Assembly: GCF_036826855.1 (NCBI RefSeq)
Contig: NZ_CP104578.1
Location: 1,798,001 to 1,862,000 of the forward strand
Direction: 5' to 3'
DNA length: 64,000 nucleotides
From: Streptomyces sp. SJL17-4
GTDB taxonomy: Bacteria > Actinomycetota > Actinomycetes > Streptomycetales > Streptomycetaceae
The notes under the pieces were generated by a model. That model was not told the origin of the DNA and made no database searches. It worked only from the letters and a program-made list of their open reading frames with translations. Position 1 is the first letter of the stretch, and the number at the start of each line of letters is the position of its first letter. This document shows, in pieces, positions 52,700 through 63,957 of this stretch. The position numbers and the translations under genes were made by a program.

Positions 52700-53299
52700 T
52701 CACGCCCACGGGTCGTTCCCCTGCTCCAGGGCAGCTTTCTCGTCCTTCTCGTGCAAGAAGCGAGCCCCAGGCCATCCCCTCAGAGATTCGTCAGTCAGGG
52801 GCCATTTCGAGAAGTCGTCACGCAGCAAACGCAGAATGAACTCGACCATGCCACACTCGTACACCGTCCATGCGAGATCACTTCGCGCATACACAGCGAC
52901 GGGCCATTTATCAGGATTCGAATCCTCAGCAATCCAGCAAAGGGTGTCTGCACCTACACCCTCTCCCCAGATGAGCATGTCCTCCAGGCGGTATCTGCCT
53001 ACCAGTGAAGGGTCGCTCCAATTTCGCACCACCGGCTCTGCCAGCGCAGCGCTCGAAAGAGGCGTTACACGCTCTTCGTCACCCTGAACACCCGGAATGC
53101 GAACTGCAAGCTGCTCCTCGATAGAGCCACACCCGAACGCAGAAATGAACTCCATGTAGTCGGTCGGGAATCTCGTACCATAATTTGCTTCCACCTCAGG
53201 CCACTCGAGATCACTCCCCCGAGTAGGCCCGACACGAGTGAGAATACGCGCAAGTTCGGCTACTGCCGTCAGCGCCCAAGATTCACTACTACTCATCAT
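52700..53299 (-). CDS. SUKH (SMI1/KNR4)-family immunity protein
   Basis: 199 residues. The SMI1/KNR4 signature is visible at about 33-60: WPEVEANYGTRFPTDYMEF and SAFGCGSIEE, followed by an IPG and an acidic RLEDMLIWGEG stretch. SUKH proteins neutralise many different nuclease toxins of polymorphic toxin systems by direct binding. The ATG at 53299 overlaps the TGA of the upstream toxin gene (ATGA), so toxin and antidote are translated together; the next ATG at 53296 is the alternative. A start at 53323 is less likely. Codon use is less GC-biased than the genome average. Confidence 0.85.
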   Translation of the reverse strand: MMSSSESWALTAVAELARILTRVGPTRGSDLEWPEVEANYGTRFPTDYMEFISAFGCGSIEEQLAVRIPGVQGDEERVTPLSSAALAEPVVRNWSDPSLVGRYRLEDMLIWGEGVGADTLCWIAEDSNPDKWPVAVYARSDLAWTVYECGMVEFILRLLRDDFSKWPLTDESLRGWPGARFLHEKDEKAALEQGNDPWA

Positions 53300-63500: not shown

Positions 63501-63957
63501 CGTCCTGGAAGTTGACCGGCTCCTCGAAGAACCGGCTGGTGAGCGTTCCATCCGTGTTCTGGAACGTGCGAACCGTGCGCTCACGTTCGGCCACCAGTTC
63601 ACGGCTCGTGTCGGGGTCGAAACCCTTGGGCTCGGGTGTCTCACCAGGTACGGCTGTGATACTCGGGCGAGGGATATCCACCGCAGTCGAACCCCTGAAC
63701 GAGGCGGAAGCCCCAGTCTCAGGAGGCAGCTCCCCCGTCGCCGGCCGGTGCCCCTTCCTCCCGCCGGTCGCGTCCGCCGACGTACCCTCAACGGCTGACC
63801 TGTGCGACCGCCCCGCAGCCGACCCCCAACGCTGATCGGGAGCGTCTGCTGCCACAGAAGACGACTCGAAGGTCTGCGCGGCAGCCGCCCCCTCGGCGCC
63901 GACAAGACACGCCATGCCAAACGCAACAGCGAAAGCAATAGGCCGCACGAAGTGCAC
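53296..63957 (-). CDS. Secreted RHS/YD-repeat polymorphic toxin with C-terminal HNH-type nuclease
   Basis: 3553 residues. Layout: signal peptide (about 1-27, ending GAAAA), a beta-rich N-terminal part with a DNRLRE-like region (about 350-555) and an Ig-like domain, then three LamG/concanavalin-like domains (about 1000-1230, 1276-1496, 1523-1740; each with a VELWFKT- or VETWFRT-type start), a YD-repeat shell to about 3100, and the RHS core end RYAYGEGQPLNGIDPTGH near 3110-3128. Beyond it lies an S/T/R/G-rich linker of about 200 residues and a toxin domain of about 150 residues with C-H3430-LLASSLGGSG and a downstream ENLATCSR, the DNA/RNA non-specific endonuclease pattern. It cleaves nucleic acid in rival cells by inference. 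GTG 63957 has GGGGGG upstream. Coupled to its SUKH immunity gene. Confidence 0.9.
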   Translation of the reverse strand: MHFVRPIAFAVAFGMACLVGAEGAAAAQTFESSSVAADAPDQRWGSAAGRSHRSAVEGTSADATGGRKGHRPATGELPPETGASASFRGSTAVDIPRPSITAVPGETPEPKGFDPDTSRELVAERERTVRTFQNTDGTLTSRFFEEPVNFQDAAGNWEEIDTTLKELPQGGTLGRAVNGSSDGWRITAGDSETTFAGHADGSPLVSLRVSETESVGFALEGAAHVPGEAEASTITYRAVRPEADVRFVAGGASVKELLVLNSADAPTEWVFPLSMQGLTAALDATGAVVFTDTSGTARARMPAGWMEDSNLAPNSNEGEISGGVAYELIDVDGRQALKVSLDSDWLHDPERTYPVKVDPTVITVSAIAATSGTYVESPYNVNFSGDTNIKAGTYDAGGHKAAGFLHFAGVESTLKNAWVLGASLALYNTWSYSCTARPVTVHPITSNWAESTASTYPGPATGAALASKSFTHGWRPAGQTAYPCGGPAWEGINLGSAGRQLVDDWTHGRKKNYGLAVKASTTDSYGWKTFGSDDYPNGKPSLDVTWTKYGATYTLGQFVTPMTATSEGTFKVTVTNRGQQTWLKNGTYALGYHLYDAASKEITDATKIRWSPMPADVPPGASVTVDAKIAPLAPGAYTLAWTMRENGVSLFSAAGVPTVAMKFSAVNIPPTLTDLAPDSGVAVDTLTPTLWAAAADRDRYPKALEYQFEVCEVEGNNTRKNCKTGTRSPSSQWIVPSGWLTWAKTYAWYGYAYDGSATSTRPEPSLLTTQVPQPPITGHLGGSDTGGGFGERAGNYTTAATDAAVPTVGPELSVTRTYNSQDPRQGNAFGAGWATRWDMRAVPESNGSILITLSTGDQVRFGRNTDGTYTAPAGSVGVLKAESGGGWTLRDGSATLHAFDSQGRLTRITDGHGRTQQLTYTNGQLVKATDVVSGRHLSFTWSGGHVIAAETNPVEGTGSNLKWTYTYEGDKLVKVCPPTSTTACTQYTYESGSKYRSTVLDANPAAYWRLNETEGEAAASEAASANGPNIGRYRDVGFRNDGVLAGTGNNAVGFAGADVGSHIELPDTALSSSSVVSVELWFKTSVPSGVLIGFQSTPLDDYSHRYNNPVLEIDPQGKLRGSFDTVGAPQTPMPSSVTVADDAWHHVVLSSSGTSQTLYLDGVAVGTRSGPVDHGAKTYTYLGAGYSSWNYDGDIESVRHFQGSLDEVAVYHHALDAATVKEHFAARNASPRMTKVTLPSGRTSSQVTYDSDTERVTEVSDSAGTWKISAPTYSSGSEGYASAVRTAGPVNYWRLGDSSGAAAADDISSGADGSYRDGVKLGQTGAFAAGDDGAIGLDGTEGAVEVPADALEGAAALSVETWFRTDQPGGVLLGLQNTELGTVPQLYTPSLLIDASGKLRGHLWRGSTATPTISTNTVTDNVWHHVVITGGPAGQSLYLDGVKIGSLAGAVKPLTLAHAYLGAGHSTSGWGGTGTVTGVQYFSGSMDETAFYTKELSAQTVLEHYRARTRLVAGNSAHYRGSVTGDAPSGFWPLDETSGTQVISKVAANNGTGTYTKAALGTTGVFGIGDGSAVQFNGDGYAEIPGLGTKTTNVAVELWFRTAKPGVLISDQKDQLAGATATSGTWTPVLYVGADGKLHGEYPSPGVTPSNASPGTVTDSQWHHAAITADSGTQTLFLDGAPVATKANAPVNHQLNTRTFIGAGFARTWPSPPADISYFTGQIDEAAVYQHSLTAEQVADHYAARTFASGSTLASTVTVTDPIGQKSSTTYDALRGQRRIASTDEAGGVTTYAYDTGGFLHTVTDTNGHSAITGHDAKGNPVSQTTCRDDNSCWTSYEEYFDNPADPLDPRNGKRTVVRDARSSGPADDRYKTTTGYTTLGLPDKLTLADGRTSATTYTSGTEAAVGGGSTPAGLVATTVTPDGAVTAHAYHANGDLATTTSPSGLVTQYAYDGIGRQTGETQVSDTHPNGVTTTHTYDQMSNLVAETGAGVKNEITGVTHTAKISRTHDADGNVLSETEEDLSGGDTAKTTTYHYDSRNLNDTVTDAEGNTTTFGYDTLGRLTSEKDPLGNEVTYSYTPLGLPYETVLKNWTGTPTGEPRDLVLESNSYDPAGRLASTTDAMGATTAFTYYDDGLPATTTARQVEKHDGTRRDIVLESNTYDGAGYLTTHVTDGGTLTQINTVDATGRVTHSVLDPNALNRSVDYVYDDDDRVTESTQRGPSTGELTERAIYDNAGNVTSSTLASGTTTLTSRHTYDQRGLLLSSTSPRGTKAGADAPAHTTNFRYDALGRLVEQTAPSVTTETHGTAAQSKRPTVTLGYNTFGDTTDSRDENGVESRSELDKLGRTTKVTLPSYTPPGGTPITPVHHTAYDALGRVTSTTDPLGRTTRYAYDQLGHLTQQTDPLAGGAPTQLNTSESGTLNGTPASLDDSGITRYSWTPTGLQLSATSPTGARTEATYDSLGRQLTATTIERFPALQNLTERFTWDDAGNQIASTSPSGLVASATYNAIGETLTETEPGQRVTRYAYDGLGRQTQVIDPTNRKSTFTYDLMGNVTEAADYGTAASALRTFKATFDEEGNKTSTIAPEGGHTSFAYDALGRLTRQTEKASDTEVITTSFGYDARGSLTRFTDGRATSTHYTFNAWGLPESTIEPATSQHPNAIDRTWTTIYDAAGQAVTEILPGNIKRERTYDGLGRLVRETGSGTSAATTPRSLSYDLDGRLTGAGTDGIQFGNTYAYNDRGLLLRTQGPSGNSQYAYDVDGNMVSRTDAAGTASYGYDTTGRLDSVADPLTGTVVQYDFDAAGRPTKEQYSRVATGGESTIAAQRTYGYDSLGRQTSDAVTRTTTGATVGSVTYGYDLDDHLTRKTTAGTAGAAENTYGYDLAGRMTSWASGATTTAYEWDKAGNLTRNGNTVGVYDDRGRLETWGAESYTYSARGTTDTIKQAEGQTRSISSDAFERVVSNGTSAFTYDSLDRVLTHDGTAFTYDGGSNNLVTDATTSYSRGPDGSLLASAAKSEPAVAQLALTDQHSDLIAGLNADGTSITGSRAYDPFGKLITSEGANPAIGYQSGWTDTTTGEVNMAARWYQPGTGGFTSRDTWQLAATPSGRANRYAYGEGQPLNGIDPTGHAVDKGYGGGGGGRGQGYGGSWGVRGGSGSRGTSNGSGKRSKPLNHGNIDRSRNDACGGGRCTPRKSTSSASNTRTKIAPNRTRNGTSNVRTRTRTSTGTRKSPTTYRGTSSPRINKGKVSSPSNGKGRASVSSKGRPPGNGLTKPVRPAEPQNITRGKNPKPAPQRPKPKPEIDVTRSERESLINAQDIRDAIELIVAESDQPLTPEEASRGDDSARSDSLPEGDCRNGFGGWRYYAPVDVDNGNRATGAEACLDESFLDANKGSGTAVKVIAPPAYQWAAGYAWELGNSPARNWRNACHLLASSLGGSGVAYENLATCSRTANSTRMDPSTPEHHVPNMAHYEGLVRNAVLDQKLVVRYRVTPLYEGSRVVPVGFRMQAYGYNPRGGPGVSLFDKEVPNDMYSKADGKWHNMGRWSPTHWTE
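58740..60960 (-). other. Three LamG-type domains of the RHS protein
   Basis: Three copies of the same domain type, about 220 residues each, separated by short YD segments. Shared landmarks are a WRL(N/G)E/WRLGD entry, a VELWF-x-T motif, WHH(V/A) and LYLDG, and a final Y...L...HY/HF motif. Divergence between copies is large, so duplications are old. LamG domains bind sugars or protein surfaces and may attach the protein to the target cell. Confidence 0.7.

What the first reader, a model, noticed from the sequence alone, without database searches (positions are those of the whole stretch)
52700..63957. Secreted RHS polymorphic toxin and ATGA-coupled SUKH immunity gene
Seen: a 3553-residue protein with a signal peptide, a YD-repeat shell ending in the conserved DPTGH core motif, and a C-terminal domain with CHLLASSLGGSG and ENLATCSR. 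Its stop codon overlaps the start of a SMI1/KNR4-family gene by 4 nt. Known: SUKH proteins are immunity proteins for nuclease toxins of polymorphic toxin systems, and the HxxxxxGG...N pattern is typical of beta-beta-alpha-metal nucleases. Inferred: the pair is a toxin and its antidote. The exact tip/immunity pair is probably undescribed.
Basis: partly seen in the sequence, partly recalled or inferred. Interest (0 to 1): 0.8.

Follow-up and report, generated by a model that had tools for sequence, protein, structure and literature searches.

The report
Streptomyces-type Rhs nuclease toxin with antidote
A soil bacterium, apparently a Streptomyces, carries a giant secreted protein that ends in what looks like a DNA-cutting enzyme, followed directly by a gene for a protein that very probably blocks that enzyme: a solid new example of a known kind of bacterial weapon and antidote.

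Summary
A 3553-residue RHS/YD-shell protein with a Sec-type signal peptide ends in a nuclease tip (residues 3352-3553); a SUKH gene overlaps its stop codon. The tip scores above Pfam's cut-off for Endonuclea_NS_2 and its AlphaFold model (pLDDT 94.4) matches NucA, EndA, Sda1 and EsaD; His/Asn/Asn/Glu are invariant in 25 aligned tips. The neighbour is a SUKH protein by predicted fold (YobK, Knr4), not by its own sequence score. SUKH follows the tip in 26 of 27 strong genus loci and 36 of 38 named-genome loci (overlapping sets). Tip and SUKH diverge together, both are low in GC, and near-identical shell ends carry other tips with other SUKH genes. A toxin-immunity cassette is well supported by comparison; activity and binding are untested. 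The kind is known: Zhang et al. 2012 list Tox-NucA with RHS and Imm-SUKH. New detail: tips on this Sec-exported shell have an even number of cysteines in 26 of 27, the second pair at subfamily-specific places, while most related tips on shorter RHS proteins have a single one. This suggests disulfide-bonded nucleases. Verdict: new member of a known kind.

The parts
53296..63957 (-). RHS/YD-repeat polymorphic toxin, 3553 aa, GTG start
   Evidence: GAGGGG upstream of the start
63877..63957 (-). Sec-type signal peptide, residues 1-27 (cleavage near AAAA-Q, by eye)
   Evidence: sequence; best hydrophobic 12-mer mean 2.44, and 12 of 12 sampled shell relatives (of 27) have a similar N-terminus; no signal-peptide predictor run
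62323..62841 (-). DNRLRE domain, residues 373-545
   Evidence: NCBIfam NF033679, 91 bits, cut-off 34
61375..61578 (-). DUF6531, residues 794-861
   Evidence: Pfam PF20148, 45.4 bits, cut-off 24.1
60298..60780 (-). LamG/ConA-like lectin domain, best of three stretches, residues 1060-1220
   Evidence: Pfam PF13385, 175.8 bits, three stretches
54568..54807 (-). RHS-associated core end, residues 3051-3130, ending in the motif DPTGH (54568-54582)
   Evidence: TIGR03696, profile 1-76 of 76; DPTGH at 3126
53905..54567 (-). Linker, residues 3131-3351; its main part (3131-3330) is rich in G, R, S, T, P and K
53299..53904 (-). Nuclease tip, residues 3352-3553; N3427, C3429, H3430, N3445, C3449, N3454 and E3474 are 25 of 25 in the aligned genus tips
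   Evidence: PF13930 40.3 bits for the tip alone, cut-off 27; conservation; model pLDDT 94.4; fold matches
53296..53299 (-). ATGA: toxin stop codon (53296-53298) overlapping the first candidate SUKH start; a second ATG starts at 53296
52700..53299 (-). SUKH (SMI1/KNR4) immunity gene, 199 aa from the first ATG (198 from the second), no signal peptide seen
   Evidence: low GC like the tip

Best explanation
This is a Sec-exported RHS polymorphic toxin with its own antidote. The YD shell probably encloses the tip, and the conserved DPTGH boundary is where the shell would cut the tip free (inferred from T6SS Rhs proteins). The released tip is a metal-dependent beta-beta-alpha-Me nuclease of the NucA/EndA type, with H3430 as the general base and N3445, N3454 and E3474 as further active-site residues, degrading DNA (perhaps RNA) in a neighbouring cell that lacks the matching antidote. 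The SUKH protein stays in the cytoplasm and neutralises the tip, protecting the producer and its kin. Tip and SUKH gene move as one cassette between shells. Shown here by comparison: shell, export signal by sequence, predicted nuclease fold and conserved active-site residues, predicted SUKH fold, conserved pairing, correlated divergence, cassette exchange. Inferred: enclosure, autocleavage, uptake by the target, substrate, binding by the SUKH protein, killing.
Against: No activity, binding or toxicity was measured, and no complex was modelled. The SUKH sequence is below Pfam cut-offs on its own, and Foldseek's best match to it is only 2.3e-3. The RGH of classical relatives reads A-C-H here; in the printed alignments to the two DNA-entry nucleases the motif is out of register. 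How a Sec-exported 3.5k-residue protein gets its tip into a target cell is unknown. Correlated divergence of tip and SUKH partly reflects shared ancestry of the loci.
Confidence: 0.87

Rival explanations
1. The tip is a secreted scavenging or matrix nuclease (like EndA or Sda1, which act outside the cell; recalled), and the SUKH gene is a safety inhibitor that blocks unexported enzyme in the producer, not a weapon's antidote.
For: The closest solved relatives are named extracellular or DNA-entry nucleases; Sec-type signal; paired cysteines suit an extracellular life.
Against: Tip and SUKH diverge together and are exchanged as cassettes between shells; second tip and SUKH genes sit behind the first in some loci; an RHS shell around a housekeeping DNase would be odd (inference).
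Confidence: 0.08
2. The SUKH neighbour is not the antidote; conserved proximity reflects hitchhiking, and another protein or the shell itself protects the producer.
For: One strong tip locus lacks SUKH (L021/L146); SUKH-like genes are common (245 of 392 genomes).
Against: Adjacency in 36 of 38 named loci; in 6 of the 26 genus pairs the SUKH ORF's first start lies exactly 4 nt inside the tip stop; correlated divergence; SUKH-type genes also follow tips of other subfamilies on related shells.
Confidence: 0.04
3. The tip targets eukaryotic competitors or predators (fungi, amoebae, insects) rather than bacteria.
For: Three LamG/lectin-like stretches and a soil lifestyle; RHS shells resemble TcC and teneurin shells (passages of PMC8636562).
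Against: A cytoplasmic immunity gene conserved with the tip would be less needed; rapid tip exchange fits rivalry among kin (inference).
Confidence: 0.05

Closest known systems
Tox-NucA polymorphic toxins with Imm-SUKH (Zhang et al. 2012, PMC3482391; passages of Tables 2 and 3 seen)
   Same: HNH/EndoVII-fold NucA tip with conserved GH, N, N, E; RHS among its repeats; Imm-SUKH among its immunity proteins; Actinobacteria in its range.
   Different: The table gives these as separate columns, so this combination in one locus is not shown there. Here the residue before the catalytic His is Cys in place of Gly, matched by a second Cys 20 residues on; the passages seen name no such subfamily.
RhsA of Dickeya dadantii (RHS + Endonuclea_NS_2; listed in PMC9990079, passages)
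   Same: RHS repeats with a PF13930 DNase tip.
   Different: Filed there as a T6SS effector; here a Sec-type signal, DNRLRE and LamG domains. Its immunity protein was not compared.
EsaD of Staphylococcus aureus (T7SS, PF13930)
   Different: T7SS route; immunity protein EsaG (start of the abstract of PMC9484751 in the listing).
WapA of Bacillus subtilis
   Same: Signal sequence, RHS repeats, C-terminal nuclease, immunity gene directly downstream (passage of PMC8321402).
   Different: tRNA nuclease tip and WapI antitoxin; 2334 aa; here a NucA-type tip, a SUKH gene and 3553 aa.
YobL-YobK of B. subtilis
   Same: YobK (2prv) is the nearest Foldseek match of the antidote; YobL is a nuclease toxin with antitoxin YobK (passages of PMC8321402).
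   Different: LXG toxin; YobL tip is listed as an LHH nuclease (PMC9990079).
pfam13930 and SUKH modules of S. epidermidis 14.1.R1 (PMC4770681, passages)
   Same: NS_2 nuclease and SUKH genes among the toxin-immunity modules of one region.
   Different: Downstream of an ESAT-6 secretion locus; no RHS shell in the passages seen.

Membership tests
Endonuclea_NS_2 / Tox-NucA nuclease | Profile match above the curated cut-off | tested here: met
   40.3 bits for the tip alone, 31.5 in the whole protein; cut-off 27
Endonuclea_NS_2 / Tox-NucA nuclease | beta-beta-alpha-Me nuclease fold of the NucA/EndA kind | tested here: met
Endonuclea_NS_2 / Tox-NucA nuclease | Conserved GH, N, N, E | tested here: inconclusive
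   H3430, N3445, N3454 and E3474 are 25 of 25, but the G before H is C in this subfamily; which N and E of the published set they are was not aligned residue by residue
Endonuclea_NS_2 / Tox-NucA nuclease | Metal-dependent nuclease activity | not testable with these tools
   No wet experiment
SUKH superfamily | Profile match above the curated cut-off | tested here: not met
   17.1-18.5 bits against cut-offs 25.4-27; a near relative, P0009, carries PF09346 and PF14568 by precomputed annotation
SUKH superfamily | SUKH fold | tested here: met
SUKH superfamily | Inhibits the linked toxin | not testable with these tools
   No complex or co-expression tested
RHS polymorphic toxin system | Conserved shell with exchangeable tip | tested here: met
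   Shell ends 95% identical with tips 30% identical; six NS_2 subfamilies and one other tip on 27 related shells
RHS polymorphic toxin system | PxxxxDPxG boundary motif | tested here: met
   P3121 stands five residues before D3126 in PLNGIDPTGH; DP[ST]GH in 25 of 27 shells, the other two read DITGH and DLSGH; H replaces the L of T6SS Rhs
RHS polymorphic toxin system | Autocleavage at the boundary | not testable with these tools
   The Asp of the second motif, catalytic in P. laumondii Rhs1 (PMC8636562, passages), is present; the first DPLGL motif reads RDTW here
WapA-type Sec-exported toxin | N-terminal signal peptide | tested here: met
   By sequence and hydropathy; 12 of 12 sampled relatives alike; no dedicated predictor, and start codons of the relatives were chosen by the script
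T6SS Rhs effector | PAAR/EagR-type N-terminus and T6SS genes | tested here: inconclusive
   No PAAR match; T6SS genes were not searched in the genome

The most novel reading that the evidence does not exclude
Export route dictates how this nuclease is built. On this Sec-exported shell the tips are disulfide-bonded enzymes: one cysteine pair is shared by the subfamilies, and a second pair sits at a place peculiar to each group of them. In this subfamily the second pair (C3429 and C3449) lies in the two beta-strands that carry the catalytic site, next to H3430. The tip would fold and become fully active only after oxidation outside the cell, so the producer is shielded before export by its reducing cytoplasm and needs the SUKH antidote only against toxin that comes back in.
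Probability: 0.2. Interest if true: 0.62.

Novelty: new member of a known kind. Interest (0 to 1): 0.42.

Why it matters
It adds a well-bounded, testable nuclease/SUKH pair to a class listed for Actinobacteria by comparative genomics, and documents a clade of Streptomyces-type RHS shells whose tips are almost all drawn from one nuclease family (26 of 27 loci), each with a SUKH-type gene behind it as far as read by eye. The cysteine pattern, if it reflects disulfides, would make a simple prediction about how secreted toxins that act inside cells are folded and kept harmless in the producer.
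Full report
WHAT IS THERE. The window is G000:C1:1798001-1862000 of an 8.54-Mb single-contig genome. On the minus strand, 63957-53296 encodes 3553 residues. Pfam and NCBIfam give DNRLRE (373-545), DUF6531 (794-861), three LamG/ConA stretches, 21 RHS-repeat stretches and the Rhs_assc_core end at 3051-3130. DPTGH lies at 3126-3130, followed by a linker whose main part is rich in G, R, S, T, P and K, and by the tip. The N-terminus looks like a Sec signal peptide, with GAGGGG just upstream of the GTG start. 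The neighbour at 53299-52700 overlaps the stop by 4 nt from the first ATG or 1 nt from the second; the database copy uses the second.

PAIRING. Of 392 genomes of the genus, 74 have a tip match at E up to 0.001 (at most 8 candidates scored in each genome, so lower bounds). There are 28 matches at E below 1e-15 in 27 genomes, of which 27 were delivered as loci (L015-L041, the window's own included). One search examined these and one weaker, partial match (L042, 1.8e-11): a SUKH relative follows in 26 of the 27, the misses being L021 and, outside the threshold, L042. Tblastn confirms L021. In named genomes 38 loci were found; 36 have SUKH sequence directly downstream (32 by ORF, four more by tblastn). 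L166 and L167 are weak (17.5% identity, E 6e-5 and 4e-4), and in L165 the tip frame is broken. The two sets overlap, and some named loci are near-copies (L137, L138 and L142 come from one strain). In 24 pairs tip and SUKH identities correlate at r 0.89, and at r 0.72 in 18 dereplicated pairs, with no permutation of 5000 reaching either; L021 (no SUKH) and the broken L038 and L039 were dropped before this count, and shared ancestry contributes to the correlation.

CASSETTE EXCHANGE. The tip has GC 0.58 and the SUKH gene 0.57, the protein up to residue 3130 0.66-0.68, the linker 0.63, the window 0.71. With shell residues 2630-3130 as query, 81 of 392 genomes match at E up to 1e-60 (three candidates scored per genome). 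Loci were delivered for the best 30 matches (L081-L110); I analysed the 27 with at least 53% identity (L081-L107). The other three (50-51%) have tails that run out of the fetched stretch; one of them (G244) has a PF13930 tip (L182). By motif 26 of the 27 tips are NS_2-type, in six subfamilies A to F (10, 3, 4, 4, 2, 3), and one (L107) is different. A Pfam scan of the tips of the same 27 loci matched PF13930 in 26 at E up to 0.01 (the answer does not say which one failed). A SUKH-type N-terminus is visible behind all 27 tips in the ORF list, judged by eye; longer stretches for 17 of them are. Of 23 such proteins scanned (ours, 16 from those stretches, six database relatives of ours), 16 match SUKH_6 and 14 SMI1_KNR4 at E up to 0.01. 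Shell ends 95% identical can carry tips 30% identical (L095, L097), and shell-tip identity correlates only at r 0.26 over 351 pairs. In Streptomyces sp. ISL-87 (L131) a second, shell-less tip followed by a second SUKH gene stands behind the first; its tip is 82% identical to the main tip of G328 and its SUKH 62%.

CYSTEINES AND EXPORT ROUTE. In the 27 shell relatives the last 215 residues hold four cysteines in 24, two in 2 and five in 1. The first cysteine (C3356 here) is invariant in the 27-row alignment, with a partner usually 24-35 residues on. The second pair is at C3429/C3449 in subfamily A, at other places in C, near the C-terminus in D, E, F and one B, and absent in the two other B tips (L082, L083). 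In 37 named tips 35 have an even count: 31 with four, 3 with six, 1 with two (L165, a broken frame); the odd ones are L139 (five) and L153 (three, a degenerate copy). That named set is biased: it was fetched by a single pattern that contains C3449. As a contrast, 20 PF13930 proteins in reading frames under 2000 aa have one cysteine in 15, two in 4 and none in 1 in their last 200 residues; three of these frames are under 700 aa. Eight longer ones have two in 5, one in 2 (L182, L187) and four in 1 (27 of the 29 loci L169-L197, L175 and L184 left out, plus L001; one of the eight, L188, is L083 again). L182 and L187 go against a simple rule for all long RHS proteins; the pattern belongs to this shell clade. 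N-termini were checked for 12 of the 27 shell relatives, all signal-like, and for 8 of the 20 shorter proteins, none signal-like. This suggests disulfides in the exported tips. The members of each set are related, so the counts are not independent, and no bond was observed. [quoted passage not shown]

HOW IT PROBABLY WORKS. Sec export, shell enclosure, release at DPTGH, entry into a neighbour and DNA degradation, with SUKH as cytoplasmic antidote. Enclosure and autocleavage are inferred from T6SS Rhs1, where the Asp of the second DPLGL motif is catalytic (PMC8636562, passages). Uptake is unknown.

NOVELTY. Zhang et al. 2012 list Tox-NucA (GH, N, N, E) with RHS repeats, Imm-SUKH and Actinobacteria in separate columns (passages). 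PF13930 tips are known from Dickeya RhsA, EsaD and YeeF (PMC9990079, passages). No paper on this pair was among the listed results (20 of 33 listed; 20 of 34; 15 of 202; 12 of 13; 12 of 59; 10 of 13); the library holds open-licence papers only. The 2026 paper on a beta-beta-alpha-Me DNase toxin with two antidotes (PMC13392607, outline and abstract) concerns a T6SS toxin of another organism. I file the finding as a new member of a known kind. The cysteine pattern and the clade's near-exclusive use of one nuclease family are the parts worth following.

Noticed in passing
G000:C1:1364472 (L001, L080): A second PF13930-tipped RHS protein (1610 aa, no signal peptide by eye) in the same genome is followed by a 335-aa gene that does not look like SUKH; it was not classified.
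   Followed up: no
L131 5183-6563 (Streptomyces sp. ISL-87): A shell-less second tip followed by a second SUKH gene behind the first cassette, 82% identical in the tip to another genome's main tip.
   Followed up: yes
L128 2008-3059 and L129 (G328, G356): Further truncated or fragmentary tips with SUKH genes behind the main cassette.
   Followed up: partly
L021 / L146 (S. caeruleatus): A strong tip with no SUKH relative in the fetched stretch: possibly a different antidote or a lost one.
   Followed up: partly
L107/L127, and L076 (own genome, G000:C1:5162500-5180500): Two RHS proteins end in tips that share an AGH-PD--W look by eye; L107's tip is the one not NS_2-type by motif. Possibly a separate tip family.
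   Followed up: no
window 51400-52690: Stretch between the SUKH gene and the RsgA-like GTPase: the three ORFs tested there gave no Pfam match; no clear gene.
   Followed up: partly
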